Shown here: positions 6,852-47,984 of the stretch, in pieces
Layout of the letters: the number at the start of each line of letters is the position of its first letter
How positions within the stretch are numbered: position 1 is the stretch's first letter
IMG/VR virus record: IMGVR_UViG_3300023097_000063
Coordinates: 1-59,254 of that record
Strand: one strand, 5' to 3'
Source: a virus
DNA length: 59,254 nt
Position numbers and translations under genes: made by a program
The notes under the pieces: model-generated
What the model was told of the DNA's origin: nothing
What the model saw: the letters and a program-made list of their open reading frames with translations, nothing else
Database searches by the model: none

Positions 6852-6892
6852 ATTGCTCAGGAAACTCACAGCAGTACGGGTTGGCTGAGCAA
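6852..6892. repeat. spaced inverted repeat, possible operator
   Basis: TTGCTCAG and CTGAGCAA form a perfect 8-bp inverted repeat 25 bp apart in the gap before the surface-protein gene. The half-site TTGCTCAG also occurs at about 5318. A TAGCGT -10-like box follows at about 6899. It could be an operator for the next gene. Confidence 0.4.
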
Positions 6893-6921
6893 AACCTGAT
6901 AGCGTCCCGCCCCGTCCCCCT

Positions 6922-6951
6922 GGGCCCGGCCATCCCCAAACGGCCGGGCCC
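6922..6951 (+). terminator. GC-rich hairpin
   Basis: GGGCCCGGCC and GGCCGGGCCC form a perfect 10-bp stem with a 10-nt loop. There is no T tract. Lying 25 bp before a start codon, it could also act in the leader of the surface-protein mRNA. Confidence 0.6.
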
Positions 6952-6975
6952 ACCCCATATTCAGGAAGAGACACG

Positions 6976-7986
6976 TTGAAGCCCCGACACATCGCCGTCC
7001 TCACCACGGCAGCCGCCCTCACCACCGGCATGCTCCTCACCCCACTCACGGCCACCGCGGGCACCGGCAACCGCACCTGCCCGCCCGTCACCCACAAGAA
7101 CACCGACGGCTGGACGACCGCCGCCGGCGGCATGGTCGCCCTGCACGCGTCGAAGGGGATCGTGCTGAAGACCGGGGCGTCGAACGACGACAAGGTCTCC
7201 TGGATCCAGTCCACCGGCGACGTCGGTGTGGACAAGCTGGGGCAGCTGGCCTACCAGACCGAGACCGTCACCGGGCACAACAACCAGGAGGCTCTTCCCG
7301 GGTACGTGCTGCGGGTCGACCTCAACGACGACGGCACGAATGACACCCACTTGATGTACGAGCCCTACTGGAACACGTCCACCGGGGCCGGCCTCTCCGG
7401 CAAGCCGAGTGGCTCGACGACTGTGTGGGACGTCGACGGCGGCGTGTTCTGGTCGTCGACGACGTTCGGTACCGCCCCGAACGAGGTGACGGCGGGTTCG
7501 GGTGGGCCGCCGTTCTACACCCTGACGCAGATCAAGGGCATGTTCCCGGCGGCGGTCGTGACCGGGTACGGGATCAACCTGGGCACGTACAACCAGAACG
7601 TGGCCGCCCGGGTGAACGATGTCCGGTTCGGGTGTGTGAAGCACGAGTGGCTGCCGGCGCCGGTCCAGCCGACCGGTACGCCGACCGGCACGGCCACGGG
7701 TACGCCTTCCGCGACGCCGACGGGGAGCCCGACGAAGTCTCCGACCGGGTCGCCGTCGGTGACGCCTTCTGGCACCAAGTCGCCCACGGCGAGCGCGTCT
7801 GTGACGCCGACCGGCTCGGTGTCGGCGTCGTCGGTGGTGATCGTTCCGGCGGGTAACGGCGGGGAGGCGCTGCCGGTGACGGGTTCCAAGCCGCTGGCGC
7901 TGGTGTGGGTGGGTCTGGGCCTGTTGGCGGCGGGTGTGGTGTTCGTGCTGGTGCTGCGGTCGCGGCGGACGAAGTTCACCGCCTGA
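6976..7986 (+). CDS. secreted LPXTG-anchored surface protein
   Basis: The TTG at 6976 has AGGAAGAG upstream. The 336 residues begin with a Sec signal peptide (KPRH, then AVLTTAAALTTGMLLTPLTA, cleavage likely after TATA-G). A mostly beta ectodomain follows, with two cysteines (about residues 35 and 217). Next comes a Thr/Ser/Pro linker from about 225 to 290. A complete sortase signal ends the protein: LPVTG at about 299-303, hydrophobic helix, then RSRR. In Gram-positive bacteria this layout means covalent attachment to peptidoglycan by sortase. It stands alone and its GC content matches its neighbours. A role in surface change or superinfection exclusion is inference. Confidence 0.85.
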   Translation: MKPRHIAVLTTAAALTTGMLLTPLTATAGTGNRTCPPVTHKNTDGWTTAAGGMVALHASKGIVLKTGASNDDKVSWIQSTGDVGVDKLGQLAYQTETVTGHNNQEALPGYVLRVDLNDDGTNDTHLMYEPYWNTSTGAGLSGKPSGSTTVWDVDGGVFWSSTTFGTAPNEVTAGSGGPPFYTLTQIKGMFPAAVVTGYGINLGTYNQNVAARVNDVRFGCVKHEWLPAPVQPTGTPTGTATGTPSATPTGSPTKSPTGSPSVTPSGTKSPTASASVTPTGSVSASSVVIVPAGNGGEALPVTGSKPLALVWVGLGLLAAGVVFVLVLRSRRTKFTA

Positions 7987-8079: not shown

Positions 8080-8101
8080 CCAGGGTTGATCACCTGGTAG
8101 C
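8080..8101 (+). repeat. hairpin directly before the tRNA
   Basis: TACCAGG and CCTGGTA form a 7-bp stem around GTTGATCA and end at the first base of the tRNA. It could aid 5' processing or termination. The stretch 7987-8079 shows no gene. Confidence 0.4.
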
Positions 8102-8172
8102 GGTAGTAGCTCAGCGGATAGAGCGCCGGTCGCGTACCGGTTATGTCGGCGGTTCGAGTCCGTCCTACCGCA
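8100..8172 (+). tRNA. tRNA, probably Arg-like, anticodon uncertain
   Basis: A 73-nt cloverleaf: acceptor GCGGTAG pairs with CTACCGC, the D arm is GCTC/GAGC with loop AGCGGATA, and the T arm has TTCGAGT. The discriminator base is A and CCA is not encoded. The anticodon arm is irregular. The best fold, GCCGG/CCGGT with loop TCGCGTA, would give anticodon GCG and a C where U33 is expected. The D loop resembles actinobacterial tRNA-Arg. Identity should be treated as open. Confidence 0.75.
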
Positions 8173-8254
8173 CTCGTCCCTCTCCGGGACGTGGGTTGAT
8201 CGGAAGCAAGACGGCTGGAGCGTGTAGCCGCACGCAATGAAGGTCGGGACACCA

Positions 8255-8340
8255 GGGCCTGTAGCTCATCGGCAGAGCGCCGCGAACCACCCGTCCGGAC
8301 GGGCTCGCGGAGGTAGGCGGTTCGACTCCGCTCAGGCGCA
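8255..8340 (+). tRNA. tRNA-like gene with enlarged anticodon loop
   Basis: GGGCCTG opposes CAGGCGC (one mismatch) as acceptor stem. The D arm (GCTC, ATCGGCA, GAGC) and T arm (GGCGG, TTCGACT, CCGCT) are normal. The anticodon stem CCGCGA/TCGCGG encloses 19 nt instead of 7, including a perfect 14-nt palindrome (CCCGTCCGGACGGG). No standard anticodon can be placed, so this may be a decayed tRNA or a tRNA with an insertion at the anticodon. Confidence 0.5.
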
Positions 8341-11025: not shown

Positions 11026-11087
11026 GGGCCGCTGTTCCCCCTGCGCAGGTCCACGGGAAATGAACCGTGCGCTGGGGGCAGCGGCCC
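11026..11087. terminator. large multi-part hairpin
   Basis: GGGCCGCTG (11026-11034) pairs with CAGCGGCCC (11079-11087). Inside, CCCCC pairs with GGGGG and CACGG with CCGTG. A hairpin of about 60 nt results, just before the lysis genes. It could be a terminator or a control element in the lysis leader. Confidence 0.6.
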
Positions 11088-11120
11088 TCGGCATATCCAG
11101 ACGAAGGAGAGGAGCGGCGG

Positions 11121-12077
11121 ATGGCCACCTTGGCGACCGCGACCATGAGGTCCCTCGGGGCCCGATGGGTTGCGGCTATCGGCTCAGCGGAACTGTCCGG
11201 GATCGTCGGAGACGCAGCACATCAGACCGATCCTGGTAAGCACCTGTCCTGGAACGACAACGTCCGCCTGTTCGGGACGGGGGCGTGGCCGCTGCGGCAG
11301 GTGGCCGGCGACCGGAACCCGCCGAACAAGACGGCGGCGGCGGCGATCGACATCAAGATGAACGCCGTCGACATGAAACGGGTTCATAACCGGTTCATCG
11401 CGGTGTTCAACGCCCGGGCCCGGGATCCGCGGGCACGGTTCGTGACGGCCTTCAACGGCTACAACGGGACCGGGACGGCGCAGCGGTTCGATATGCAGAC
11501 CGGTGGGATCTCGTGGACGGACGACTCCCACAACTGGCATGAGCACGTCGAGGTCCCTTACGACCAGGTCGACAGTGTGCGCATGGTCGACGCGGTCATG
11601 TCGATCGTGGCCGGGGAGACCCTGGAGGCGTACGCGGCACGTACCGGCACCACCACGAGCACCGGCGGCGAGGACGCTTCCGGTGAGGAAGAGGTCCACA
11701 TGATCCCCATCCAGCTCCCCCGCGGCTTCGCGTTCGACGAGAAGGGCGGTCTCCTGGCCCGCGAGTACGCGATCAGCGTCCCGGTCGAACCGGCCGGGCA
11801 CGCCGGCAACCCGATCGTTGGGACGAAGAAGCTGTACCTGTCGTTCTCGTCCGACTTCAACGACAAGCCGATCCCGGTCCGGGTCGCGATCTGGAACGGC
11901 GCTGGCTGGACGGTGACGACGTTGCAGGTGAAGAAGGACGGCCGTAACGATGTGGCGGTCCCGCCGGTGAAGGGCCCGTCGGCGTACAACGTCAGCGTGG
12001 GCCGTGTGCGCCCGATGGCGACGACGGACGCAGCCGAGGCCACCTATCCGCTGTCCGTGCTCGTGACCGTCGCCTAG
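11121..12077 (+). CDS. endolysin, M15-type DD-peptidase-like
   Basis: AGGAGAGGAG precedes ATG 11121; 318 residues. Residues 30-145 carry the metal-peptidase pattern of VanY/M15 lysins: H34 and H41 (AAHQTDPGKHLSW), D77 (AAAAIDIK), and HNWHEHVEV at 138-146, where H140 and H142 would complete the zinc site. This domain cleaves peptidoglycan cross-links in the family. A Thr/Ser/Gly/Glu linker near 175-195 leads to a beta-rich C-terminal domain of about 120 residues, possibly for wall binding. The holin gene follows directly, which supports the lysis role. Confidence 0.8.
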   Translation: MATLATATMRSLGARWVAAIGSAELSGIVGDAAHQTDPGKHLSWNDNVRLFGTGAWPLRQVAGDRNPPNKTAAAAIDIKMNAVDMKRVHNRFIAVFNARARDPRARFVTAFNGYNGTGTAQRFDMQTGGISWTDDSHNWHEHVEVPYDQVDSVRMVDAVMSIVAGETLEAYAARTGTTTSTGGEDASGEEEVHMIPIQLPRGFAFDEKGGLLAREYAISVPVEPAGHAGNPIVGTKKLYLSFSSDFNDKPIPVRVAIWNGAGWTVTTLQVKKDGRNDVAVPPVKGPSAYNVSVGRVRPMATTDAAEATYPLSVLVTVA

Positions 12078-12086
12078 GAGGGTGTG

Positions 12087-12443
12087 ATGTCCGGAGGTCT
12101 GATATTCGGGCGGGAGCCTGCGACTCTCGCCGCCGCGTTCAAGGCCGCTGTCGCCTTGTTCGCGGCATTTTTTCTGCCCCTCAGCATCGAGCAACAGGGT
12201 GGGATCAACGCCTTGTTCGCCGCGGTCCTGGGCGTCGTCGTCGCGATGGCCGTGTCGGCGGAGAAGGCCCTGCCGCTGCTCCTCGGCCTGGTCGAGGCGG
12301 CCGTGTATCTCGGGGTGGCGTTCGGGTGGCAGGTGCCGGCTGACAGTCAGGCGCTGATCGTGGCGTTCACCGGGGCGGTGGTCGCGATCTGGACGCGGGA
12401 CAGGGTGACGGCGCCGATCGGCCCGGACGGAGCATGGCAGTGA
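12087..12443 (+). CDS. holin
   Basis: 118 residues from ATG 12087, with AGGAGG upstream (a GTG at 12084 is an alternative). There are about four hydrophobic segments (FKAAVALFAAFFLPLSI, INALFAAVLGVVVAMAV, ALPLLLGLVEAAVYLGVAFG, LIVAFTGAVVAIW) and a short polar tail. Size, membrane pattern and position after the endolysin gene make a holin the natural call. Confidence 0.75.
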   Translation: MSGGLIFGREPATLAAAFKAAVALFAAFFLPLSIEQQGGINALFAAVLGVVVAMAVSAEKALPLLLGLVEAAVYLGVAFGWQVPADSQALIVAFTGAVVAIWTRDRVTAPIGPDGAWQ

Positions 12444-15660: not shown

Positions 15661-16359
15661 CTACACCGTCCCGAACGGCTCGCTGGGGAAATCCTGGAAG
15701 ACGTGCGGTGCCAGGACCCGCAGCTCCTCCACGACCATCCCCGACCAGCGGCGGATCTCCGCATCCGCCGCCACATGCCACCGCCGCCGCAACACATCCC
15801 GCCACGCCCGCAGATTCCCCGACACCACAAACCGGGTCTCCGTCATGTTCGGCAGCACCGCACGGGCTGTCTCCCGCGCCTGCTTCCGCGGCACACCCTC
15901 CCGCTCCAGCTCGGCCACGAGCATCGCGTACACGTTCCTCGCCACCGTCCCGGCCTGGACCAGCTGCGCCGCCAACCCCGCCCGGCCAGCGAGCGCCGGG
16001 GGCACGACCATGCGTGCCTCGGACTCGTCCACGTACCGCTGCGACAGCACACTGAACGACAGATGCCGGTGCCTCTCCAGCTCCAGCAGCAGAGACCTCG
16101 ACACCCCCTCCACGTAGAACGTGGCGGTGGCGTGTTCGAGGACGGACTCGTGCTGCTGGGCGAGGATGTTGTTCAGGTAGCCGGCGTTCGACGCGGTGAG
16201 CGGGTTCGGCTTCTTCCATGACTGGTAGCAGGTGCGGCCGGCGAACTCTGCGAGAGCCTGGCCGCCGTCGGCGCCGTCCGCGGTCCAGCCGGTGAGCTTC
16301 TCAGCCAGGGCCGTGTCGAACGTGGTGTGGGCGATGAGGTGGATGGCAGGTTCGGCCAC
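15661..16359 (-). CDS. thyX: FAD-dependent thymidylate synthase ThyX
   Basis: 232 residues from GTG 16359, with GGGAG 7 nt upstream. The diagnostic ThyX signature RHRx7S is at R96-S106 (RHRHLSFSVLS), followed by QRYVD. Other family segments are HESVLEHATATFYVEGVSRS and ETRFVVSGNLRAWRDVL. The length is normal for ThyX. The enzyme makes dTMP from dUMP with FAD and methylenetetrahydrofolate, raising dTTP supply for phage DNA. It is the last gene of the leftward cassette, next to the sugar genes. Confidence 0.95.
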   Translation of the reverse strand: MAEPAIHLIAHTTFDTALAEKLTGWTADGADGGQALAEFAGRTCYQSWKKPNPLTASNAGYLNNILAQQHESVLEHATATFYVEGVSRSLLLELERHRHLSFSVLSQRYVDESEARMVVPPALAGRAGLAAQLVQAGTVARNVYAMLVAELEREGVPRKQARETARAVLPNMTETRFVVSGNLRAWRDVLRRRWHVAADAEIRRWSGMVVEELRVLAPHVFQDFPSEPFGTV

Positions 16360-17122: not shown

Positions 17123-18232
17123 TTAGCCGACCCCCACGCCACGGCCCTGCAGCTGGTAAGCGTGTTCCCACGCGGACCACCACAGGCGGGCGTTCCCTGA
17201 GATCGTAAAGCGCTCCCGTACCGCCTGTCGCCCTGCCGCACCGAGTTCGAGACGCAACGCACTAGACCGCGTCAGCCGGCGCAGATGCTGATGCCACTGC
17301 TTCGGCGACTCAGCGATCAGGCCGCCGCCGGTCGCGGCGTAGAAGGCCCGGTATTCGTCCAGACCGGACGCCACCCACGGGATACCCAGCGCGCTGTACT
17401 CCAGGGCCTTCAGCCAGCTCTTCGACCGGTTGAAGGGGTTGTGCTGCAGCGGGGCGATCCCGACCCCGATCTCCGCCGCGAGCGTTCCCGCGTACTCGTC
17501 GATCGGGACCGGCCCCGTACAGCGCACCTGGCGGGCCTTCACCCCGAACTCGCGGGCGACTACCTCATCAGGGCCCGGTCCGACAATCCGCAGGAACTGT
17601 CCTGCAGTCGTGAACAGCCGGCCGATCGCGTCCCCGACGACCTGGGCGTCGTCCGGGTGGGTGAACACCGACCCCCCCCAGCCGACCTGGGCGGAATCCT
17701 CGTGGGGGACGTCGAGAAGGTGGTCGGGGGCGTAGTTCGGGATCAGGACCCCGCGGCCGTGAGAGGCGTACCGGTCCAGGAGGGGCTGGGTGGTTGCGGT
17801 GACGAGGGTGGCGGCGTCACAGGCACGCTGGCAGTGGTCCCAGTTGTACTCGGAAGAGAACCGCGGGTTGAACTTGTTCACGGCGATGTGCCGCGGGTGG
17901 ATCGCGGCGAGGTCGTCGTCCATTTCTACGACGACGGCGACGCCCTGGTCCCGGAGGATCTGCACGCTGTCCGCGAGGTACCGGTTGAGGGGGCGCTGGA
18001 AGACGACGACGTCGGTGTCTTCGGGAACGTGGACTTTCTGCGCCCGCCCGCCGACGATTTTCCCCGCCTGGTTGAGGCGCGCCCCGATGATCTCCGCCGA
18101 CAGGAACCCGGAAACCTCTGCCTCGGACACGACCTGAACGTTGTGGCCGGTCGCAGCGAGAGCCCGCGAAGGCCAGATCATCCGGTAGGCCCCGCAGCCG
18201 GTTTCGTCCGCGGGAAACACGTACACCTTCAC
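17123..18232 (-). CDS. GT4-like glycosyltransferase (GT-B fold)
   Basis: 369 residues from ATG 18232. It starts with MKVYVFPADETGCGAYRMIW and has the GT-B two-domain layout: EMDDDLAAIHPRH in the N-domain, then VGWGGSVFTHPDD, EIGVGIAPLQHNPFNRSKSW and LKALEYSALGIPWVAS. The last has the conserved E of retaining GT4 enzymes. It transfers a sugar from a nucleotide donor to an unknown acceptor. It is the most downstream transferase in the cassette and overlaps the preceding gene by 4 bp. Confidence 0.8.
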   Translation of the reverse strand: MKVYVFPADETGCGAYRMIWPSRALAATGHNVQVVSEAEVSGFLSAEIIGARLNQAGKIVGGRAQKVHVPEDTDVVVFQRPLNRYLADSVQILRDQGVAVVVEMDDDLAAIHPRHIAVNKFNPRFSSEYNWDHCQRACDAATLVTATTQPLLDRYASHGRGVLIPNYAPDHLLDVPHEDSAQVGWGGSVFTHPDDAQVVGDAIGRLFTTAGQFLRIVGPGPDEVVAREFGVKARQVRCTGPVPIDEYAGTLAAEIGVGIAPLQHNPFNRSKSWLKALEYSALGIPWVASGLDEYRAFYAATGGGLIAESPKQWHQHLRRLTRSSALRLELGAAGRQAVRERFTISGNARLWWSAWEHAYQLQGRGVGVG

Positions 18233-18855
18233 CAGTTACCGGCCTTTCCGCTCGTGTTGCCGGGAACGCCGGGGCGGCCGCGGCCGTGGTGCCGCCACAA
18301 CCACGAGCGGACGGGGACGTGGTGGAAGATCGCCCCCGCGTCGAGCATGCGCAGGTAGAAACCCCAGTCGTCGTATTCGCCTCCGGAGTGCGGGTCGGTC
18401 TTGTATGCGAACCCGCCGACCTCCTGCGCCAGCCCGGTCCGCACCAGCGAGGTCACGGGAAGCCACGACCGCTCCCGGAGCAGGTCGCCGTCGAACGGGA
18501 GCCCGAACCGGCCCCACTCCTCCCGCGGCGCCAGCTGCTGGGCGTTCTGGTCGATGACGAAACACCCGGAGTAGACGACGTCCGCACCCGATTCGCGTGC
18601 GCCGGCTTCGAGGACACGCAGGTGGTCGGGGAGCAGGACGTCATCATCATCCACGAACGCACTGAACTCGGTCACCGACTGCATGAGCCCGCGGGTGCGG
18701 GTGGCGGCGGACCCGGCGCGGGTGTTGTCGGTGGCGATGATGACGGCGTCGGCGCCGCGAGTCTGGGCATTGATCGAGCCGAGACACTGGACCAGATCCG
18801 CGAGCCGCGGCGGAATGTGCGGGACGACGACGGTGATCCCGGGCCCGGTCACCAC
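18229..18855 (-). CDS. GT2-like glycosyltransferase (GT-A fold)
   Basis: 208 residues from GTG 18855 (a second GTG at 18852 is equally possible); it overlaps the stop of the upstream transferase. Features: ITVVVPHIPPRLADLVQCLG, the donor-binding acidic motif AFVDDDDVLLPDHLRVLEAG, and GGEYDDWGFYLRMLDAG, typical of GT2 enzymes. The N-terminus closely echoes the next gene (IPPRL), so the pair probably arose by duplication. A longer open frame back to 19416 lacks support. Confidence 0.8.
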   Translation of the reverse strand: MVTGPGITVVVPHIPPRLADLVQCLGSINAQTRGADAVIIATDNTRAGSAATRTRGLMQSVTEFSAFVDDDDVLLPDHLRVLEAGARESGADVVYSGCFVIDQNAQQLAPREEWGRFGLPFDGDLLRERSWLPVTSLVRTGLAQEVGGFAYKTDPHSGGEYDDWGFYLRMLDAGAIFHHVPVRSWLWRHHGRGRPGVPGNTSGKAGNW

Positions 18856-19421
18856 CGCGACGCCAGACCGCTCGTATTCGCGTTGTGGACCTCGTACGTC
18901 CACAGGATCTCGGGGGTGTGGGCGAACACGGCGCCGGCTTTGACGCAGCCGAGGATGAACTCCCAGTCCTCCCCCGACCACTCCTGATGCGCCGGCTCCC
19001 GCTGGCCGAATCCGACCGACTTCGCCAGGTCGGTGCGGACGAGAACGGTCATGGTCGTATGGTGCGGGTTCGCCGGGTCCATCTGCCGGCCGCGGTGGCC
19101 GGGGAACACGTTGTTCCCGTCGAACCAGCCCCACAGGAAGTCGGCGCCGGTGTCGGCCTGGAGGCGGTGGAGGGTTTCGAGGTACGGGGGGTGTAAACGG
19201 TCGTCGTCGTCCAGGAACGCGACCCACGGCGTGGTGACGCCGTCCAGAGCGCGCTGCCGGGTCGCGGCCGCGCCTTGCTTGCACACGTCGGTCGCGATGG
19301 AGATCGCGGCGGCGGGCATCGTCTGGGCGGCGACGGACTGGAGGGCACGAGGGAGATACGTGTTGAGGCGGGGCGGAATTACCGGGATGACGATGGTGGT
19401 GTCGTCGGGGTGGCATGCCAT
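18849..19421 (-). CDS. GT2-like glycosyltransferase (GT-A fold)
   Basis: 190 residues from ATG 19421, with AGGA about 8 nt upstream (an ATG at 19439 is possible). Motifs: TIVIPVIPPRLNTYLPRALQ, WVAFLDDDDRLHPPYLETLH, and SGEDWEFILGCVKAGAVFAH. It uses a metal-bound nucleotide sugar in the known family. It is coupled to the 18229 paralogue. Confidence 0.8.
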   Translation of the reverse strand: MACHPDDTTIVIPVIPPRLNTYLPRALQSVAAQTMPAAAISIATDVCKQGAAATRQRALDGVTTPWVAFLDDDDRLHPPYLETLHRLQADTGADFLWGWFDGNNVFPGHRGRQMDPANPHHTTMTVLVRTDLAKSVGFGQREPAHQEWSGEDWEFILGCVKAGAVFAHTPEILWTYEVHNANTSGLASRW

Positions 19422-19462
19422 GCGCCCGATCCTAGACATCGGGCCGGGCGCACGGCCGCTGA

Positions 19463-19690
19463 TCAGTTGAGAAAGTCCTCTGCGCTGACACCGTCGATGG
19501 TCTGCTTGATGACGCTCTGCGCTGCGCCCTCGGAGGTGTACGGGCCGCCCGCCAGGGGAAGGCCACCGCCGTCGTAGTCGACCTCGATGCTCCATGTGCT
19601 GGCGGAGCCGATCGCATAGACGGACTTGCAGCGCTTCAGGTTGACGTAGTTGCCGTTGGCAAGCTTGATGAAGTCTGGCGTTGAACTCAT
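19463..19690 (-). CDS. small protein A of the sugar cassette
   Basis: 75 residues from ATG 19690 (AGGA upstream). Pattern: FIKLANGNYVNLKRCKSVYA, then a beta segment (WSIEVDYDGG), then a C-terminal helix (EGAAQSVIKQTI). It has the same length and layout as the protein at 21247, so the two look like distant paralogues. No function is known. Confidence 0.75.
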   Translation of the reverse strand: MSSTPDFIKLANGNYVNLKRCKSVYAIGSASTWSIEVDYDGGGLPLAGGPYTSEGAAQSVIKQTIDGVSAEDFLN

Positions 19691-19705
19691 AACGTAATCC
19701 TAGAT

Positions 19706-20623
19706 TCAGTCGCCATACCGGCGGAGGGCTTCGGCCACACCGTCTTCGATGCTGACCTGCGGCACGTACAGCTCGTGCATGCGGGCCGGATGACCCACCC
19801 TGCGGAAGACACCCATGGGCTTGTCCGCGAGGACGTTCACCCCCGGGTCGTAGCCCACCTGCCTCGCCGCTATACCGATCAGGTCGGCCATCGAAGTGCC
19901 CAGGCCGGTACACAGGTTGACCGGCTGGCGCTCATCGGCATCGACAACGGCAAGGGAGGCACGGACGACGTCGGTGATGTGGATCCAGTCCCGGATCTGA
20001 TCCTGGTCCCCCCACACGTCAAGCGGGTCCTGGCGCTGAGCGGCCCGGCCAACGATGGCAGGGAACGGGTAGTCGAGGTCCTGGGTGGCCCCGTACCCGG
20101 AGAACGGGCGGACGACGTGAACGCGGAGTCCTTCGTGGGCGGCCGCGGCGGCGAGGCGTTCGCCGGTGATTTTCGCCCACCCGTAGTTCGCGTCCGGCTG
20201 GCGCATGTCGGCCAGGTCGATGTAGTCCTCGCGGAGCTGCGTGCTGAAGCTGTGCCGGGTCTGCATGCTGACCGGGTACGCGGCGGAGGACGAGTAGTAC
20301 AGGACTGCCTTCTGGCCGGTGGCGAGCGCCCACCGGAACAGGGAGGCGTCGAGGAGGAGGTTTCCGGCGAGGGCCATCGGCTGGCCGTCGATCGTCGCGC
20401 GGCCGCCGACTGTGTACGCGCAGTGGACCACGAGGTCGAACTGGTGCGTGACGTCGCGGAAGAACTGCAGGGCGTCGATCTGGGAGTGTCTGTGCGCGGC
20501 CAGGCTTCCGTGTGCGCCCCGCAGGTCGATGCCATCTACCTCCCAGCCACGTGCGACGAGTTCGGCGGCGATGTGCCGGCCGACGAACCCGGAGCTGCCC
20601 GTGACGAGCGCGCTCGGGCTCAT
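19706..20623 (-). CDS. NAD-dependent sugar epimerase/dehydratase
   Basis: 305 residues from ATG 20623. The Rossmann motif GSSGFVGRHIAAEL lies at about residues 9-22, with IDLRGAHG binding the cofactor ribose. The YxxxK pair is in ANYGWAKITGERL, and YYSSSAAYP supplies the catalytic Ser. This is an extended SDR that acts on nucleotide sugars (UDP-glucose 4-epimerase-like). It would make a sugar donor for the nearby transferases. Its ATG overlaps the methyltransferase stop by 4 bp. Confidence 0.85.
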   Translation of the reverse strand: MSPSALVTGSSGFVGRHIAAELVARGWEVDGIDLRGAHGSLAAHRHSQIDALQFFRDVTHQFDLVVHCAYTVGGRATIDGQPMALAGNLLLDASLFRWALATGQKAVLYYSSSAAYPVSMQTRHSFSTQLREDYIDLADMRQPDANYGWAKITGERLAAAAAHEGLRVHVVRPFSGYGATQDLDYPFPAIVGRAAQRQDPLDVWGDQDQIRDWIHITDVVRASLAVVDADERQPVNLCTGLGTSMADLIGIAARQVGYDPGVNVLADKPMGVFRRVGHPARMHELYVPQVSIEDGVAEALRRYGD

Positions 20624-21240
20624 CGGACGGCCTCTGCGGCGACGACCTGGAACATGCCGACCCGTTCATGCCGGAGGATTTCCCACCCCGACGTGGTGAA
20701 CAGGTCCGCGTATCCGGCTTCGTCGAACGCCCACGCGTGCTCGGCGCAGTGGGAGTGGTCGGTTTCCGTGGCCGGCGACGACGCGACGACCGCACGGACC
20801 CCGGCCGCGTGGAGACGGCGGAGGACCGTCCACGGGTCAGCGACGTGTTCGAGGACCTCGGTCATCACGGCCAGCTCGGCGAGTTCGATGCCGTGGAAGG
20901 TGTCGCCGGTGGCGAACACGTCGGCGTAGCGGCCGTCAACGCCGCGTTCCGTCCAGCCTTGCTGGTTGGACGGCTGGAAGTCGTACCCCCACGCCTCGAT
21001 CTCTTCCCGCGGGTATCGGGCGAGGAGGGACAGGAGGCCACCGTCGCCGCAGCCGAGGTCGACGACGGTGAGGGCGCCGATGCTCGCGTGGTGCCGGTAC
21101 CAGGTGACCAGTTCGGCGGCCTTGTCGAGGCGTGGCCGGTGGACGCCTTGTTCGAGGTGGGGGGCGCGTTCCCGGTCGGCGTGGAATGCGGCGGTGGACA
21201 CGTGGGGGGTGTCGCCGTCGAAGAGTTTCCAGAACGTCAT
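20620..21240 (-). CDS. SAM-dependent methyltransferase
   Basis: 206 residues from ATG 21240. Class I motif I is VVDLGCGDGGLLSLLARYP, followed by AWGYDFQPSNQQG (acidic loop) and LAVMTEVLEHVADPW (motif IV region). It resembles sugar or small-molecule methyltransferases of the UbiE/class I type. In context it may methylate a sugar. It is similar to the enzyme at 21468 (both have GCGDG, AWGYD and TEVxEH). Confidence 0.85.
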   Translation of the reverse strand: MTFWKLFDGDTPHVSTAAFHADRERAPHLEQGVHRPRLDKAAELVTWYRHHASIGALTVVDLGCGDGGLLSLLARYPREEIEAWGYDFQPSNQQGWTERGVDGRYADVFATGDTFHGIELAELAVMTEVLEHVADPWTVLRRLHAAGVRAVVASSPATETDHSHCAEHAWAFDEAGYADLFTTSGWEILRHERVGMFQVVAAEAVR

Positions 21241-21246
21241 GCGGGG

Positions 21247-21471
21247 TCAGTCATCAAGGTCGACGGTGCCGAGGATGTTCTCGATCCGCTGCTTGAGGGT
21301 CTCGGCCTCCGGCTCCGTCATCGGCGTGTTAACGGCGAACTGCGCGACGGCGTCGTTGCCGGCGTTGTTCCCAATGACCTGGTAGCCGCCATCCGGGTTC
21401 ACACCGACGAAGAACGAGAGGATCTGGTTCACGTTGATCGCGTTGTCGTACTTGTCCCGAAGGAACATCAT
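21247..21471 (-). CDS. small protein B of the sugar cassette
   Basis: 74 residues from ATG 21471 (or the adjacent ATG at 21468, which has better spacing to GGAG). Pattern: FLRDKYDNAINVNQILSFFV, a beta segment, then EPEAETLKQRIENILG. It looks like a distant paralogue of the protein at 19463. Function unknown. Confidence 0.75.
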   Translation of the reverse strand: MMFLRDKYDNAINVNQILSFFVGVNPDGGYQVIGNNAGNDAVAQFAVNTPMTEPEAETLKQRIENILGTVDLDD

Positions 21472-22106
21472 GTCTCCTTGAACGCGGTGACTGCCTGGAA
21501 TCGTAGCGTCCGCCAGAGGGCTGTTCCGTGGTTGAACGGCTTCTCTGAGGCGCACTCGCGCTGATCGGCCACCGTCCACCCTGCCTCTTCGAACAGCTGC
21601 CGGTAACCGGGTAGGTCCCATGCCCATGCGTGTTGCTCGTAATGCCAGACGTCGTCCTCGGCGGACGGCGAGGTAGCGATGAGCCAGCCTGCCGGCAGGC
21701 TCCGCACGAAGGCGTGCGGGTCCAGCAGATGCTCGATGACCTCGGTGACGGTGACAAGCTGCCCGTATTCGAGCGGCTCCGCCAGGATGTCGGCTTGGCG
21801 TGCGTCCACTCCCACCCGGGCGGCCGCCGCCATGTTCCCGGTGCCGGCGTCGTAGCCCCATGCGCGCAGGCGCGGATGGCGGTCGCGTAAGAGCGCGAGG
21901 AAGCTGCCGTCGCCGCACCCGATGTCCGACACGGTGCTCAGCGCGGGTTCTTTGGCGATGAGGTCGGTGACGGCCTGGACGACCATGGCGAGGCGTTCGG
22001 CGTGGCCGATCTGGTCGTCGCCGGGCACCCACGGGTGAGCCTCGAAGAACGCGGTGGTGGTGAAATCGGGGATCGTGCCTTCGGGGAAGAGCCGCCATTC
22101 GGTCAT
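21468..22106 (-). CDS. SAM-dependent methyltransferase
   Basis: 212 residues from ATG 22106, overlapping the upstream stop. Motif I is VSDIGCGDGSFLALLRDRHP. RAWGYDAGTGNMAAAARVG follows, then LVTVTEVIEHLLDP. The C-terminus has HYEQHAWAWDLPGYRQLFEE, which closely parallels the 20620 enzyme. The substrate is unknown; a sugar or a glycan is suggested by the cassette. Confidence 0.85.
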   Translation of the reverse strand: MTEWRLFPEGTIPDFTTTAFFEAHPWVPGDDQIGHAERLAMVVQAVTDLIAKEPALSTVSDIGCGDGSFLALLRDRHPRLRAWGYDAGTGNMAAAARVGVDARQADILAEPLEYGQLVTVTEVIEHLLDPHAFVRSLPAGWLIATSPSAEDDVWHYEQHAWAWDLPGYRQLFEEAGWTVADQRECASEKPFNHGTALWRTLRFQAVTAFKET

Positions 22107-22780
22107 GCGGGCATCAGCTTCCGGAGTTGGTCGACGTCCGCGGTGAAGTCGTGGCGGTCGAACATGTGCTGATCGTGGCTGTACATGTCCGGGGCGTTGA
22201 CCCTCCGGTAGCCGTCGTCCCACTCGACTTTCCCCGACACCGGATGGAGGTGCTCGACGATCACGTCCGGGAGGTACCGGATCCGGCCGGTGTGGGTGCC
22301 GAGGGCGAGGACCCAGTTGTCCATGTACAGGTGCTTGAACTCCGGCGGTGACATGTGCCCCAGCACCCGGACGACATCGGAGGTGACGGCGAACTGGGTG
22401 GGGAGGTTCGGGCCTTGGATGAGGTCGTTGCCGTACACCCATCCCCAGCGCAGGTCCGCGAGCGCGGCGAGGTAGGCGGTGTCGAAGCCGAGGGTGCGTG
22501 GCCGGTGGTCGTCGCCCATGAACATGAGGTTGTCGGCCTGGTCGGCCGCCCAACCGGCGCCGCAGTTGAGGGCTTCGATCATGTTGGTGTGGGGGCCGTG
22601 CCGGAGGTGGAACCCGGCGTCCGCGGCCGCGGCGACGTAGGCGTCGAAGTCGGGGTCGTCGTCGTCGATGACGATCGTGACCGCGGTGTCCCCGGTGGTG
22701 GTGGCCTGGACGGCGTGGGCGATCTCCGCGACCGCGCGCGGCCGGCCACGGGTGGGGACAATGATCATGAGGTCGTTCAT
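22103..22780 (-). CDS. GT-A-type glycosyltransferase
   Basis: 225 residues from ATG 22780. Opening MIIVPTRGRPRAVAEIAHAV, a DDDD motif (TIVIDDDDPDFDAY), MFMGDDHRPRTLGFDTAYLA, and a C-terminal HLHPVSGKVEWDDGYRRVN. It is typical of phage-encoded GT-A enzymes found beside tail genes. Its ATG overlaps the stop of the minor tail gene, so it is expressed with the virion genes. Confidence 0.75.
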   Translation of the reverse strand: MNDLMIIVPTRGRPRAVAEIAHAVQATTTGDTAVTIVIDDDDPDFDAYVAAAADAGFHLRHGPHTNMIEALNCGAGWAADQADNLMFMGDDHRPRTLGFDTAYLAALADLRWGWVYGNDLIQGPNLPTQFAVTSDVVRVLGHMSPPEFKHLYMDNWVLALGTHTGRIRYLPDVIVEHLHPVSGKVEWDDGYRRVNAPDMYSHDQHMFDRHDFTADVDQLRKLMPA

Positions 22781-25649: not shown

Positions 25650-26482
25650 TGCTGGCCTTCGACCCACGTGCCGGTCGCAGCGCCCCAGGTCCCGGTGGTG
25701 TCTTCCCACCCGTATCCGTCGGGGGCGAGGAACGTCGACCCGACCGGAAACACACTTAACAGTGACAGGGGGGCCTCGACTGGGCCGTTCGTGACCCGGT
25801 ACGGCAGCTGCCACACCCGGTACGGCTTGAACATGTCGATACTCACCCTCGACATGGTCACGTCCCCGACCGCGATGTAGTCCAGGCCCGACGTCGTCAA
25901 ACCCCAACCGGTCTCTACCGGCAACTGCAGGACCAGGTCCACACCGTCCGCGAGGATCGTCTTCATCGCCGTGATGTCCGGCAATGCCAAAGACACGAAC
26001 ACGGCGATACCGGCCTCACCGCGACGCGGCTGCGCGACCGTGATCGGCACGACCCCGCCGTCAAGGTCGAACACCCCCGTAGCCGTGGCCAGGCCGACAT
26101 CACCGAACCCCTGAAAGAAGATCCCCGACACCGGATCACACGCCGACCCCAACCGGGGGCAGTCCTCCGCGAACTCGATGTCCCTCGACGGGTTCGTCGG
26201 ATCCCGCAACCATCCTGCCGCGCTGGCCGTGACAGCCACCTCCCCAGACGTGAGCACCACCGTGCCGCCGTCATCCTCGAGCTCGTACGAGACGGGGGTG
26301 GCGGCGGGCGCTTCGGTGTCGTAGACGACGATCCAACCCGCATCATCCCTGACCGGGAACCCACGGACCAGCGCCCTCCCGCCCGGGGTGATCCGGTACA
26401 GGGCCCACACATCCCCCGAGGTGGGGGTTTCCGCGACGACCTGCGCGGCCGTGCCGACGGACGTGGCGGTGAGTGAGGCCAT
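25646..26482 (-). CDS. distal-tail-like minor tail protein
   Basis: 278 residues from ATG 26482, overlapping the tape measure stop. It is beta-rich (AGWIVVYDTEAPAATPVSYE, GVDLVLQLPVETGWGLTTSG, DYIAVGDVTMSRVSIDM). By gene order after the tape measure and by fold-like pattern it corresponds to the distal tail/baseplate hub component of siphoviruses. Confidence 0.7.
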   Translation of the reverse strand: MASLTATSVGTAAQVVAETPTSGDVWALYRITPGGRALVRGFPVRDDAGWIVVYDTEAPAATPVSYELEDDGGTVVLTSGEVAVTASAAGWLRDPTNPSRDIEFAEDCPRLGSACDPVSGIFFQGFGDVGLATATGVFDLDGGVVPITVAQPRRGEAGIAVFVSLALPDITAMKTILADGVDLVLQLPVETGWGLTTSGLDYIAVGDVTMSRVSIDMFKPYRVWQLPYRVTNGPVEAPLSLLSVFPVGSTFLAPDGYGWEDTTGTWGAATGTWVEGQQ

Positions 26483-29400
26483 CAGACACTCCTCGGCTTG
26501 GCCAGGACCTTACGGGCCGTACGCCGCTGCGTGTCCTGCGCGGCGGTGGTGGCCAGCGCGGTGAACCGTTCGGTGCCGAACTGCGCCACGACCGTCACCG
26601 GCCCCATCGCCCGCTGCTCCGCATGACCACCCCTACCACCCGGCGCCGGCACCGCCGACTGAATCACATCAGCGACCTGCGTGACCGTCCTGCGCACATC
26701 GGGGAGCTCCGCCTCGAGGCCTTGGTCGGCGCCCTTCAGGAAGTTGACGCCGGCGGCTTTGGCGAGTTTCGACGGGGACGCGTTCCCGAGGGCCGAGTTG
26801 AAGAAATCGACGATTCCGGTGCCGATGTCCCGGACGTAGCCGAACAGGCGGGGGACCATCTCGCTGATGCCGTTGATGAACCCGGTGATCAGGTTCTTGC
26901 CGGCGGTGACCATCGACCCGGTGAGGTTCGAGAACAGGCCGGGTAGCTGCCCCAGGAGGGTGCCGATGTCGCGGAGTGCCTGCAGGAGGCCGCTGGTGAC
27001 GGTGCCGATGAACCTGCCGACGGCGGCGGCGGCCGCGCCGATCGCGTCGATCAGCCCCCGGAAACCGGAGACGATCGCGGCGACCGTGAGGGGCACGAGG
27101 TTGAGGGTGAACATCAGCGACTGGAAGACGATCTTCAACGCGCCGGACTCCGTCGCCCACTTCAAAATCGCGGTGACGGCCTCGAGGATGAGCACGATCA
27201 ACGGGGTCAGGATGGGCAACATCTCGGTGAACGCGACTACCAGGGCAAGCCACGATTCGACCAGCGGCGGCAGGAGCGGCACCAACGACGCGAACACCTG
27301 CAGCAGCAGCGGGGCCAGCGCAGTGGCGACCTCGAGCAGCGGCGGGATCAACGCCAGAAAAGCTTCGACGAGCTGCGGCAGGTAGGGGATAAGGGCGGTG
27401 AGGAGCTGGGTGCCGAACTCGAGGAACGCCCCGGTCATCTGAACGAACAGGTCGATGATCTGCGGAATGTACGGGATCAGCGCCTGCAGGGCGACGATCA
27501 GCTGCGCGGACAAGGCCTGCGCGAACTGGACCAGAACCGGAACCAGCTGCGTCAACAGGCCGAGGAGTTGCGGGGCGGCGGCCAGGAACGCCTGCGCGAT
27601 CGCCTGCGCCACCTGCAGAATGACCGGCACCAAAGGTGCGAACGCCTGTGCCAGGTCAAGGCCGAGCTGGACGAAGATCGGCAGCTCCGTCGCGATGAGC
27701 TGGGTGATGATCGGCAGGAACGTCTGCAACGCCTGCGTGAACGCGTCCGCGAACAGCGAGATCAGCGGGCCGAGCGTGACGGCCATGTTCGTCAGCGCCC
27801 CGGCCAGCGCCACCAGGACCGTCGTGGCCAGTTGCGCCAGCAACGGCAACAGCGGTGCGACAGCGGTCAGCAGAGCGGCGATCGCCTGACCGACCGGGAA
27901 CGCCGCCGGGATCAGGTTCGTCAGCGCGGCACCGACCGCCTCCAACACGGCCGTCAGCGCCGGCGCGAGCGCGACGATCAGATTCCCGAGGATCGTCGCG
28001 AGGGGCTGGAACACCACGGCGAGGGCGGCGATCGCCGGCGCCAACGATGCCAGCGGCGCACCCAGCGACGCGAGGGCGGGCCCGAGCGCCTGGACCACGG
28101 TGACGAGTGCGGGGCCGACAGCGATCGCGATCTCCGCGAACGCCCCCGCCAACGCCGGAAGCTGCGCGACGACGGCCTCGAGGACGGGGAAGAGGGCTTC
28201 GACGACCCGGTTGACCTCTTGGAAGAACCCGACCAAAGCTTCCTGCCCGGCGGTGGAGGACAGGAAGCCGTTGAGCTGGTCGAGGAGGATCGTGAAACCC
28301 GATCCGTTGATCGTCTCCGCTGCGGTGAAAATCGACTTCAGGATCCCGAACACGTCTGCCGCGACGGCCCCGAACGCCTTCAACACCTCGATCCCGTTCA
28401 GGATGATCTGCTCGAGCTGCCCCGACGCCGCCAGATCGGACACGTAGCCGGCGAACCGTGCGATCGCATCCCCGGCGCCCTCGGTGATGGAGGTGAGAAC
28501 GCGGGCGCCGACCTCGGCCACATCCACCAGGGCGGTGATCAGGGGTGCGAACGCAGGAGTGAAGTTGTCCAGGGTCGCCCGCGCGGACGTGAAGATCGAG
28601 GCGAGGTCGAGTTTCACCGACTCCTGCCGTAGGGCCTGCAGGGAGGCGACGACCTGCCGGTTGATGACCTCGGCCAGCCCGGCGAACCCGGCGGTCGCGA
28701 CCGGCAGCAGCTGCGTACCGGTCTGCCGGAGCTCCTCCGCGACCCCGGCGAGGAGGGCTTGCTGGACGGTGCGCTGCAACCCCTCGTACACAGTCTTCAG
28801 CTGCAGGAGGGCCTCGACGACCTCACGCCCGGCCGGGGCCAGCTTCGCCATCGCATCAGCGGCCTTGTCGACACCGGCGGCGGTGCGCTCCTGCGCGGCC
28901 GCGAAAGCCTCCTCCGCCGCGATCGCCGCACGCTTCGCCGTCGCCAGATTCCGCTGCGCCTGCGCCTGCCGCTCGAGCGCATCCTGGACCAGGTCGGACC
29001 CTTCGACGCCCTTCTTGTTCGCGTCGGCCTGCTCTTTGGCGAGTTTCTTGATCCGCTTCTGGATGTCATCCAGACGGTCGGCGGCGTTGTCGTAGGCGAG
29101 CTGTGCCCGCTCCAAATCCTGGGCGGTAGCCTTCCCGGACTTGACGTCGGCCTGGACGCGGCGGAGTTCAGCCTCGGCGTCGGTGAGGTCGAGGATCGCA
29201 CCGCGTTCGTCACGCCGGGCGTCGTCGATGTCCTCGGCCCGGTCTGCGATCTGGTCCGCGGCGGTCTGGCGGGCGTCGTTGACGGCTTCGGTGGCCTTGG
29301 CGAGGTCACGTTCGGAGTCGGCCACCCGCTGGTTCGCCTGGACCAGGGTCTCCTGCGCGGCCTTGACCCGGCGCCCGTACTCGGCGGCGGACTCGCCTGC

Positions 29401-30207
29401 GGCGCTCTGGGCGCCAACGACGGCTTTGAGGGCGTCACCGACCCCCATCAGCCCGATCTTGAACGTGGCGATGACCGCCGCGGCGGTAGCGAGCACCCCC
29501 GGGATGATGAGGGCAGCGCCGGCGGCGTTGGCGAGTTCGACGGCGAACGCGGCCAGGAGCGGGATGGTCTGGGCCGCGGCTGCGCCGATACCAGCGATGC
29601 CGGTGGCGGTGACGGCGAGCCCGGCGCCGTAGCCGCCGGACAGGATCCGTGACAGCGGGCCGTCACCGAACCCGGCGCCGATCCTGAGGAAGTTCTGGAG
29701 TGCGGACGTGACCGCTGCCAGGGGACCTTTCAGCCCCGCTTGGAAGGCGTTGCCGAAGTCAAGGCCCGATTGGTTCCCGTGCCTGCGGGCAGAGGCGCGG
29801 AAGGCGTTACCGAAGCTGTCTCCGGAGGCGCCGCCCTCGGAGACGAACCTGCCACGGCCGTCGCGGAGGCGCCCCTGGGCGTCCCGGGTGAACTGCTCCC
29901 CGAACTGTGCCCCCGCGGCCCCGCCGGCTTGCCCTGCTTCATCCTCGATACCGGGGAGGCCGTCTTTGACGAACTTGCCGCGGGAGTCGCGTAGACGGCC
30001 GTTGGCGTCTTTGACGAATCCGTCCCCGAACGCCTGCCCGGAACGTTCACCGGACTTCGCGAAGTCGTCTTCGACGCCTTTGAGGTTGTCGTTGATCGTC
30101 TTCTGAAAGTTTTTGGTGGCGTTGTCGGCCGACTTTTTCATGTCGGCGGGGAGGGTGTCGTCGTCTACGCGGAGTTCGACGTAGACGACGTCTACGGGTT
30201 GGGTCAC
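26482..30207 (-). CDS. tape measure protein
   Basis: 1241 residues from GTG 30207. The N-terminal region is helical with NATKNFQKTINDNLKGVEDD and imperfect repeats of about 30 residues (GRLRDSRGKFVKDG, GRLRDGRGRFVSEG). A coiled coil spans about 280-420. A very long hydrophobic helical array follows (residues about 540-1080, rich in A, L, V, F, I, P), then a C-terminus ending KPRSV. Length, composition and place after the frameshifted chaperone genes are decisive. It sets tail length and passes into the host envelope at infection. Confidence 0.95.
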   Translation of the reverse strand: MTQPVDVVYVELRVDDDTLPADMKKSADNATKNFQKTINDNLKGVEDDFAKSGERSGQAFGDGFVKDANGRLRDSRGKFVKDGLPGIEDEAGQAGGAAGAQFGEQFTRDAQGRLRDGRGRFVSEGGASGDSFGNAFRASARRHGNQSGLDFGNAFQAGLKGPLAAVTSALQNFLRIGAGFGDGPLSRILSGGYGAGLAVTATGIAGIGAAAAQTIPLLAAFAVELANAAGAALIIPGVLATAAAVIATFKIGLMGVGDALKAVVGAQSAAGESAAEYGRRVKAAQETLVQANQRVADSERDLAKATEAVNDARQTAADQIADRAEDIDDARRDERGAILDLTDAEAELRRVQADVKSGKATAQDLERAQLAYDNAADRLDDIQKRIKKLAKEQADANKKGVEGSDLVQDALERQAQAQRNLATAKRAAIAAEEAFAAAQERTAAGVDKAADAMAKLAPAGREVVEALLQLKTVYEGLQRTVQQALLAGVAEELRQTGTQLLPVATAGFAGLAEVINRQVVASLQALRQESVKLDLASIFTSARATLDNFTPAFAPLITALVDVAEVGARVLTSITEGAGDAIARFAGYVSDLAASGQLEQIILNGIEVLKAFGAVAADVFGILKSIFTAAETINGSGFTILLDQLNGFLSSTAGQEALVGFFQEVNRVVEALFPVLEAVVAQLPALAGAFAEIAIAVGPALVTVVQALGPALASLGAPLASLAPAIAALAVVFQPLATILGNLIVALAPALTAVLEAVGAALTNLIPAAFPVGQAIAALLTAVAPLLPLLAQLATTVLVALAGALTNMAVTLGPLISLFADAFTQALQTFLPIITQLIATELPIFVQLGLDLAQAFAPLVPVILQVAQAIAQAFLAAAPQLLGLLTQLVPVLVQFAQALSAQLIVALQALIPYIPQIIDLFVQMTGAFLEFGTQLLTALIPYLPQLVEAFLALIPPLLEVATALAPLLLQVFASLVPLLPPLVESWLALVVAFTEMLPILTPLIVLILEAVTAILKWATESGALKIVFQSLMFTLNLVPLTVAAIVSGFRGLIDAIGAAAAAVGRFIGTVTSGLLQALRDIGTLLGQLPGLFSNLTGSMVTAGKNLITGFINGISEMVPRLFGYVRDIGTGIVDFFNSALGNASPSKLAKAAGVNFLKGADQGLEAELPDVRRTVTQVADVIQSAVPAPGGRGGHAEQRAMGPVTVVAQFGTERFTALATTAAQDTQRRTARKVLAKPRSV

Positions 30208-42816: not shown

Positions 42817-44390
42817 CGGGAGGCTCCCTCGAGAACGGCGAGCATGGTGTCGTCGTAGATCGACGCGGTCATCGTCTGATCCTCGACCGGCTGGTCCGGG
42901 CCCGCACCGGCCTGCGGATCATCCGCCTCATCGTCGCCCTCGCCCTCCGGCGCCTGCTCCTCAACCGCAGGAACCGTGGGGGCGGCCGCTTCGATCGGGA
43001 CCTTCTTACCCGACAGCAACGACACCACCTCGAGAGTCGTCGCATCGAACGCCCCGCCGGCGATGAACCGCTGCCGCAGGAGCATCTTCATCAGCTCGTC
43101 CGGGTCCGGGGCATCGGATTCGTCGAAGCCGGCTTCGCGGCGGGTGGCCTGGTCGTCGATGAGCATCTTGTCGTTGAGCTGCACACCACGTTCGGCAAGG
43201 TCCGGTTTGGCGGTGAGTTCGGACGGGTCGTACCAGATGAGGTAGCGGACGCCTTCTTCCGGTGCGATCTCGGCCGCGGCGAGCATCGGGTACAGGTAAC
43301 CCTCGGTCAGCCCATGGCAGATGATCTCCGCCGGTGGGCTGATGTGCTTCTTCACCCCCTCAGCGTCGAGGCCGGCGGCGTTCCAGTGGTTGGTGTCGCC
43401 GAGGCCGGTGACGACCTCCTGGGGCATGTCGACGGTCGCGGCGAGGCGCTGGATGGCCTTTTCGCGGTTGGTGAGGTCGGATTCGGGGACCTCGTTCGCG
43501 ACGATCAAGTGCCGGAATCGTTCGATGAATTCGGCTTTGACGCGCAGCGGGATGGGGATCGCGGCGGATGCGGTGCCCGGGTTTTTGATCGACTTCTGGG
43601 CGATGTCGATCAGCTGGGCGACGAACGGGTCGGGTGCGTCCTTGAACTCAGGGTTGACCGGGAACGTGACTTCTTCGGGGATGAGGAGGAAGCCGTTGGA
43701 GGCGAGGCGGGACAACAGCTGGGCGATGATCTTCCGGTTGTAGAAGTCGATCTCCCGCAGGTACACCAGACACGCCCGCGTCATCGACGTCGGCTGCCAC
43801 GCAAACCGCGGATCCGGATCCCAAATCCGCACGACCAGCGACTGGTCGGGGAGCATCTCCCACGTCTTCTCATCGACCCTAACCTCGAACCGCGGCCCGG
43901 ACCTGCCACGCGCGGCCGCCTTCGTCCGCACGTCGTCGTTCGAACGTACGTCCACCGACCGGCCGCCACCGTTCTTCGCGTCCCGGTCGAACATGACCAG
44001 ATTCGCCTCACCCGGCACGGCCAGCTGCAGGCCGAACTTCTTCATCAAAGCGGCCTGCCCGCCGACACCACCGGCGAGCTGGGCGACGATCTCCGCCACC
44101 GGGCCGTCGTCCAAATATTCGGGTTCGGACGAGTCCGGGGACATTTTCGCCGCCCGCAGGCGCACGCGAGAGAGGGCGTTGGCACGCCAGTTCACGGCGA
44201 ACCACAGCTCCCCGCCGGCCGTGTAGTACTGCCATGCTTCGGTCTGCCAGGCCTCGTTACGGATGATCGGCCTGGTGACGTCGTTGAGGACGCGTGCGGA
44301 GGCGACGACGGCGTTGTAGCCGGGTGCGGGGTCGGGCAGGTCCGGCGGCCTGCGTGTTGTTCGTGCTTGCCGCCCTGCGGACCTGCCCAT
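42813..44390 (-). CDS. portal protein
   Basis: 525 residues from ATG 44390. NEAWQTEAWQYYTAGGELWF, FAVNWRANALSRVRL, EANLVMFDRDAKNG, LVVRIWDPDPRFAWQPTSM, and TNREKAIQRLAATVDMPQEV followed by VTGLGDTNHWNA. These match siphovirus portals. The C-terminus is acidic. Overlap with MuF (4 bp) and the terminase upstream fit packaging gene order. Confidence 0.85.
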   Translation of the reverse strand: MGRSAGRQARTTRRPPDLPDPAPGYNAVVASARVLNDVTRPIIRNEAWQTEAWQYYTAGGELWFAVNWRANALSRVRLRAAKMSPDSSEPEYLDDGPVAEIVAQLAGGVGGQAALMKKFGLQLAVPGEANLVMFDRDAKNGGGRSVDVRSNDDVRTKAAARGRSGPRFEVRVDEKTWEMLPDQSLVVRIWDPDPRFAWQPTSMTRACLVYLREIDFYNRKIIAQLLSRLASNGFLLIPEEVTFPVNPEFKDAPDPFVAQLIDIAQKSIKNPGTASAAIPIPLRVKAEFIERFRHLIVANEVPESDLTNREKAIQRLAATVDMPQEVVTGLGDTNHWNAAGLDAEGVKKHISPPAEIICHGLTEGYLYPMLAAAEIAPEEGVRYLIWYDPSELTAKPDLAERGVQLNDKMLIDDQATRREAGFDESDAPDPDELMKMLLRQRFIAGGAFDATTLEVVSLLSGKKVPIEAAAPTVPAVEEQAPEGEGDDEADDPQAGAGPDQPVEDQTMTASIYDDTMLAVLEGASR

Positions 44391-47967: not shown

Positions 47968-47984
47968 GATCCCCACGATAGGGC

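What the first reader, a model, noticed from the sequence alone, without database searches (positions are those of the whole stretch)
6976..7986. Phage gene for a sortase-anchored cell-wall protein
The protein has a signal peptide, a two-cysteine ectodomain, a Thr/Ser/Pro linker and a complete LPVTG-helix-RSRR signal. A phage product destined for covalent attachment to the host wall is unusual. It has its own hairpins, a spaced inverted repeat and a stand-alone position, as expected of a moron. Possible roles: superinfection exclusion, receptor masking, or change of host adhesion.
Basis: partly seen in the sequence, partly recalled or inferred. Interest (0 to 1): 0.75.

Follow-up and report, generated by a model that had tools for sequence, protein, structure and literature searches.

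The report
Phage protein stapled to host wall
This virus of soil actinobacteria carries a gene for a protein built to be secreted by the infected cell and covalently attached to its outer wall, and related wall-attached proteins turn up in several unrelated actinobacterial viruses, so these viruses probably remodel the surface of their host, perhaps to keep rival viruses out.

Summary
ORF 6976-7986 (336 aa, TTG start with a good ribosome-binding site) has a signal peptide, a two-cysteine ectodomain, a Thr/Ser/Pro stalk and LPVTG-hydrophobic-RSRRTKFTA, above NCBIfam's LPXTG cut-off. The window is a tailed-phage genome. The gene lies outside the virion block, next to tRNAs and upstream of the lysis genes.

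The ectodomain belongs to an unnamed family of secreted Micromonosporaceae proteins (24 of 355 genomes). In 21 chromosomal copies with inspected surroundings none has a sorting signal. All five phage-borne copies do: the window, two IMG/VR phages and two Micromonosporaceae prophages. Those five are not one clade, and genomes of this kind carry 5-10 sortase genes. A more distant relative sits in cultured Microbacterium phages (Megan, Teamocil, Gina, Nicole72) with LAQTG, the class E sortase motif, annotated only as 'hypothetical' or 'membrane protein'.

So actinophages repeatedly carry wall-anchored versions of a putative glycan-binding jelly-roll domain. Most likely use: altering the infected or lysogenic cell's surface to block competing phages. 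The anatomy is well supported; the function is inference. Prophage-encoded LPXTG proteins (SasX/SesI) are known, so I class this as a new variant of a known kind.

The parts
6976..7986 (+). Gene for the sortase-anchored protein (336 aa, TTG start, stop 7984-7986)
   Evidence: homologues
6963..6970 (+). Shine-Dalgarno AGGAAGAG, 5 nt before the TTG
   Evidence: read from sequence
6976..7059 (+). Signal peptide (residues 1-28, cleavage after A-T-A)
   Evidence: sequence; shared n/h/c-region in homologues
7060..7656 (+). Ectodomain (residues 29-227), predicted jelly-roll beta-sandwich; Cys35 (7078-7080) and Cys220 (7633-7635) invariant, likely a disulfide
7657..7869 (+). Thr/Ser/Pro-rich stalk (residues 228-298)
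7870..7884 (+). LPVTG sortase motif (residues 299-303)
7885..7983 (+). Hydrophobic segment and basic tail RSRRTKFTA
   Evidence: same tail style in Micromonosporaceae genomes
6921..6952 (+). Perfect 11-bp hairpin TGGGCCCGGCC/GGCCGGGCCCA in the leader (no T-run; function unknown)
6853..6892 (.). Spaced inverted repeat TTGCTCAG...CTGAGCAA, possible operator or second hairpin
8100..8173 (+). tRNA-Arg (anticodon GCG) immediately downstream (neighbour, not part of the gene)
12087..12443 (+). Holin; lysis region downstream on the same strand (context)

Best explanation
The gene is a phage accessory (moron-type) gene for a sortase substrate. In the infected (or, for relatives, lysogenic) Micromonosporaceae host the protein is exported by Sec, its LPVTG is cleaved by a host sortase, and the jelly-roll ectodomain is linked to peptidoglycan on a Thr/Ser/Pro stalk. 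The ectodomain belongs to a family that the hosts secrete in unanchored form; the phage versions have covalent wall attachment. The most likely job is to change the cell surface so that other phages adsorb or inject less well (superinfection exclusion or receptor masking by a wall-glycan-binding domain). Shown: gene anatomy, phage context, recurrence in unrelated phages, sorting signal in phage copies only. Inferred: host family, actual anchoring, glycan binding, exclusion. My confidence in the wall-anchored accessory protein is about 0.93; the figure below is for the whole statement including exclusion.
For: LPXTG model over cut-off. Phage backbone around it. Ectodomain homologues in 24 of 355 Micromonosporaceae genomes, best E 8e-25 to the window sequence alone, against 3 marginal hits in 397 genomes of the phylum. 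Tail RRxKFxA occurs in Micromonosporaceae LPxTG/LALTG-type proteins. Five of five phage-borne copies have the sorting signal. None of 21 chromosomal copies does, 12 of them in one shared chromosomal neighbourhood; Fisher p about 1.5e-5 if independent. Phage copies are not one clade (AU p = 0.007) and sit in genomes with different capsid/portal families. Sortases 5-10 per genome. Cultured Microbacterium phage relatives end in LAQTG, the class E signal of soil actinobacteria (PMC5148588). Fold hits, weak, include carbohydrate-binding module CBM11.
Against: No expression, localisation or phage-exclusion data. The fold model is low confidence (pLDDT 53) and its PDB matches are weak. No integrase was found in the window, so lysogeny, the usual setting for exclusion genes, is not shown here. 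Wall anchoring takes time, and a lytic phage may lyse the cell before coverage is useful. The 166-kb IMG/VR record (L091) had no terminase match, so its viral status rests on IMG/VR.
Confidence: 0.45

Rival explanations
1. Host-fitness or lysogenic-conversion adhesin: the anchored domain alters hyphal or spore adhesion, aggregation or nutrient-polymer binding of the carrier cell, as SasX is thought to do in staphylococcal colonisation, with no effect on other phages.
For: Prophage copies sit at the repressor/integrase end of their elements; chromosomal relatives are secreted host proteins; weak CBM-like fold hits; SasX/SesI precedent (PMC7285666).
Against: The window phage shows no sign of lysogeny in what I tested, and a purely lytic phage gains little from host adhesion.
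Confidence: 0.25
2. Late-acting lysis or release aid: coating the dying cell's wall prevents progeny from re-adsorbing to debris, or the domain weakens or marks the wall for lysis.
For: Gene lies about 4 kb upstream of the holin on the same strand; in Nicole72 and Megan the relative follows the lysin A region.
Against: In the two prophages the gene is at the early/immunity end, away from lysis genes; no enzyme-like motif.
Confidence: 0.15
3. Virion-associated protein (fibre or decoration) that only resembles an anchored protein.
For: Jelly-roll domains are common in virion fibres (general knowledge).
Against: Signal peptide plus complete sorting signal; separate from the structural block on the other strand; same anatomy in five phage-borne copies and LAQTG versions in Microbacterium phages.
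Confidence: 0.03
4. Passive cargo: a captured host gene with no function for the phage.
For: Host family has homologues.
Against: Recurs in several unrelated phages with conserved cysteines and always with the sorting signal that host copies lack; strong divergence without decay.
Confidence: 0.08

Closest known systems
SasX / SesI, LPXTG surface proteins of phi-SPbeta-like Staphylococcus prophages (PMC7285666)
   Same: Phage-borne gene with signal peptide and LPXTG motif, an accessory gene
   Different: No ectodomain homology tested or expected; SasX is a colonisation factor of a temperate phage in Firmicutes; here actinophages, including one without a detected integrase
CwpV, C. difficile wall protein giving superinfection-exclusion-like phage resistance (PMC4737114)
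   Same: A wall-displayed protein blocking phage DNA entry shows that the proposed function is possible
   Different: Host-encoded, held by CWB2 domains not sortase, repeat domain unrelated
Streptomyces chaplins anchored by class E sortase via LAXTG (PMC5148588)
   Same: Same anchoring route in Actinobacteria; the Microbacterium phage relatives carry LAQTG
   Different: Host developmental proteins, unrelated ectodomain
Secreted Micromonosporaceae proteins with the same domain (L033-L052)
   Same: Ectodomain 31-38% identical, same invariant cysteines
   Different: No stalk or sorting signal; chromosomal
Microbacterium phage Megan gp43, Nicole72 gp44, Teamocil and Gina gp86
   Same: Signal peptide, related domain (hhalign 96.3%, E 1.6e-9), TP-rich stalk, sorting signal
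   Different: LAQTG instead of LPVTG; extra region between domain and stalk; annotated hypothetical or membrane protein

Membership tests
LPXTG sortase substrates (TIGR01167) | N-terminal Sec signal peptide | tested here: met
   Sequence reading and alignment with secreted homologues, (no dedicated predictor available)
LPXTG sortase substrates (TIGR01167) | C-terminal LPXTG + hydrophobic segment + basic tail above curated cut-off | tested here: met
   17.2 and 22.1 bits against 15.9
LPXTG sortase substrates (TIGR01167) | Host encodes sortases | tested here: met
   5-10 PF04203 hits per genome in four Micromonosporaceae genomes; the host itself is inferred and the sortase class was not resolved
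LPXTG sortase substrates (TIGR01167) | Covalent linkage to peptidoglycan | not testable with these tools
   needs cell fractionation and mass spectrometry
LPXTG sortase substrates (Pfam PF00746) | Match to Gram_pos_anchor | tested here: not met
   No match in the window protein; in the control genomes the model rings only in two Firmicutes
Moron / lysogenic-conversion gene | Accessory position, not conserved in phage relatives | tested here: met
   Absent from nine records that share the capsid family, some of them fragments; found in unrelated phages
Moron / lysogenic-conversion gene | Own promoter and terminator | tested here: inconclusive
   Strong hairpin and inverted repeat upstream; no sigma-70-type promoter
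Moron / lysogenic-conversion gene | Carried by a temperate phage | tested here: inconclusive
   Two relatives are in prophages; window has no integrase match but may be incomplete
Superinfection exclusion protein | Blocks adsorption or DNA entry of other phages | not testable with these tools
   needs phage challenge assays
Carbohydrate-binding module (CBM11-like) | Confident fold match or ligand residues | tested here: inconclusive
   Model pLDDT 53; CBM11 E about 0.02, CIA30-type best at 4.5e-3

The most novel reading that the evidence does not exclude
Actinophages share an unrecognised surface-remodelling strategy: a domain that hosts secrete is carried by the phage on a stalk with a sorting signal matched to the host's sortases (LPVTG in Micromonosporaceae phages, LAQTG in Microbacterium phages), so that the infected cell's own sortase installs a viral barrier against competitors.
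Probability: 0.35. Interest if true: 0.78.

Novelty: new variant of a known kind. Interest (0 to 1): 0.58.

Why it matters
Phage-encoded sortase substrates are known mainly as prophage virulence factors of Firmicutes. Here the same trick recurs in unrelated actinophages, with the sorting signal present in phage copies and absent from host copies of the same domain. That gives a clean, testable hint that viruses use host sortases to rebuild the host surface. It also shows that phage genes annotated 'membrane protein' or 'hypothetical protein' should be rescanned for LAXTG and LPXTG signals.

Tried and rejected
Single-sequence searches of annotated phages, plasmids, IMG/VR and GTDB with the window protein found nothing; homologues appeared only by six-frame search of Micromonosporaceae genomes and then with profiles. 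The tail pattern was not found in IMG/VR. Anchor-only tblastn of phages found nothing, probably because of the low-complexity filter. PHROGs hits of the window protein cover only the low-complexity stalk and were rejected. Weak phylum hits L030 and L032 were rejected as marginal or in another frame. I considered and rejected that the phage copies form one lineage (with a long-branch caveat). A virion role was considered and rejected.

Full report
What the window is. The 59,254-bp window is a complete IMG/VR virus record. It carries a tailed-phage backbone on the minus strand: large terminase 46417-47976, portal 42813-44390, head genes, capsid 36899-38566, tail genes and tape measure 26482-30207. 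A holin and the lysis region lie on the plus strand at 11-12.4 kb. Portal and capsid are 30-39% identical to many actinophages. No close relative exists in the annotated phage set. No tyrosine or serine integrase was detected, though most small ORFs were not scanned and the record may be incomplete.

The observation. ORF 6976-7986 encodes 336 aa from TTG. AGGAAGAG precedes it by 5 nt. The parts are: a signal peptide ending A-T-A; an ectodomain with Cys35 and Cys220; a Thr/Ser/Pro stalk; LPVTG at 299; a hydrophobic segment; and RSRRTKFTA. NCBIfam TIGR01167 is exceeded (17.2 against 15.9 bits as a protein, 22.1 in the genome scan), while Pfam's Gram_pos_anchor is not matched. Among 356 six-frame ORFs of at least 100 aa it is the only one with an LPxTG-type signal. 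Upstream there is a perfect 11-bp hairpin ending 23 nt before the start codon and an 8-bp inverted repeat with 24 nt between; the leader folds better than shuffles (z = -3.3). The hairpin leaves no room for a promoter behind it, so it is either in the leader or a terminator that is read through; 'stand-alone' is therefore unproven.

Finding relatives. Searches with the protein alone failed everywhere. The tail motif RR(T/V)KF(T/V)A led to Micromonosporaceae genomes, for example SLPVTG...RRRRVKFTA in Planosporangium. Searching that family with the ectodomain gave 28 of 301 genomes at E <= 0.01, best 8e-25, and with a profile 24 of 355 at E <= 1e-5. A phylum-wide sample gave 3 marginal hits in 397. 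This points to a Micromonosporaceae host; four such genomes hold 5-10 sortases each. Sortase class was not resolved.

The pattern. The profile retrieved two IMG/VR phage relatives: L090 (52 kb, with terminase and portal) and L091 (166 kb). Two of the genome hits lie in prophages. G518 has a complete one with portal, capsid, tape measure, endolysin, holin, DnaB, SSB, repressor and integrase. G525 has a repressor-like gene, an anti-repressor, RecE and RecT. All four, like the window, have signal peptide, the two cysteines, a stalk and an LPxTG signal: LPVTG, LPVTG, LPLTG, LPLTG. On their own, TIGR01167 scores for these four vary around its cut-off: L088 is above as a protein, L091 is above in the genome scan but just below as a protein, the other two are below, so the claim rests on the aligned motif, hydrophobic segment and tail. 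By contrast, 21 other genomic copies with inspected surroundings lack any sorting signal; at least 12 share conserved chromosomal neighbours. The phage copies do not form one clade (three changes, AU p = 0.007), with the caveat that they are long branches. Capsid and portal families differ between the carriers, so the gene moves between unrelated phages or was acquired more than once. Direction of transfer between hosts and phages is not resolved.

Wider reach. A fold search of a low-confidence jelly-roll model (three sequences, pLDDT 53) had as best viral hit a 485-aa protein of Microbacterium phage Megan (E 7e-5). Independently, tblastn with the L090 protein touched Gina, Teamocil and Nicole72 (E 0.3-0.4). 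Profile comparison supports homology (96.3%, E 1.6e-9), and Megan gp43 (485 aa) is 81.5% identical to Nicole72 gp44. The members I translated (Megan, Teamocil, Nicole72) end in LAQTG + hydrophobic segment + RRR. LAXTG is the signal of class E sortases of soil actinobacteria (PMC5148588). Three further Microbacterium phage proteins (Jayden gp81, Rie18 gp58, Mercedes gp37) have LAQTG signals with a different N-terminal part. The records name them 'hypothetical protein' or 'membrane protein'. My paper searches found no description of sortase substrates in actinophages; the held library is open-access only.

How it most likely works. Export and sortase attachment follow from the signals and from sortases being present (inferred, strong). 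A jelly-roll with weak similarity to CBM11 and CIA30-type domains suggests glycan binding (weak). The phage-only sorting signal suggests that being fixed to the cell's own wall, not diffusing, is what helps the phage. That fits interference with later phages better than secretion of a public good. Exclusion by a wall protein has a host precedent in CwpV (PMC4737114), and phage-borne LPXTG proteins a precedent in SasX/SesI (PMC7285666). I put wall-anchored accessory protein at about 0.93, and exclusion or receptor masking as the main use at about 0.45.

Noticed in passing
L092:1111-1614 (G761, the 166-kb IMG/VR record of L091): A second, unrelated LPKTG-anchored small protein in the same virus record, lying among tRNA genes; scores over both the TIGR01167 and Pfam Gram_pos_anchor cut-offs.
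   Followed up: partly
L103:1907-3193, L104:1736-3364, L105:1811-3097: Microbacterium phage proteins Jayden gp81, Rie18 gp58 and Mercedes gp37 have signal peptides and LAQTG signals with a different ectodomain: further unannotated phage sortase substrates.
   Followed up: partly
window 8255-8340: Second tRNA-like gene found by Rfam (40.3 bits) but missed by ARAGORN; it has about 14 extra bases in the anticodon region.
   Followed up: no
window 8100-8173: Phage tRNA-Arg with anticodon GCG; from general knowledge bacteria usually read these codons with ACG (inosine).
   Followed up: no
window 17123-22780 (-): Glycosyltransferases, nucleotide-sugar epimerase and neighbouring genes form a sugar module; Teamocil also has a glycosyltransferase and UDP-glucose dehydrogenase close to its LAQTG gene.
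   Followed up: no
window 11067-12077 (+): Probable endolysin next to the holin with no Pfam or PHROGs match; HxxxD...HxH-like residues suggest an M15-type peptidase (from reading only).
   Followed up: no
L098:8140-8931 (G520): An unanchored homologue sits inside a gene run that looks like a Wadjet-type (SMC-like ATPase) defence operon; recognised by eye, not tested.
   Followed up: no
window 15661-16359 (-) and L091:11927-12757: ThyX/thymidylate synthase in both the window phage and the L091 phage.
   Followed up: no
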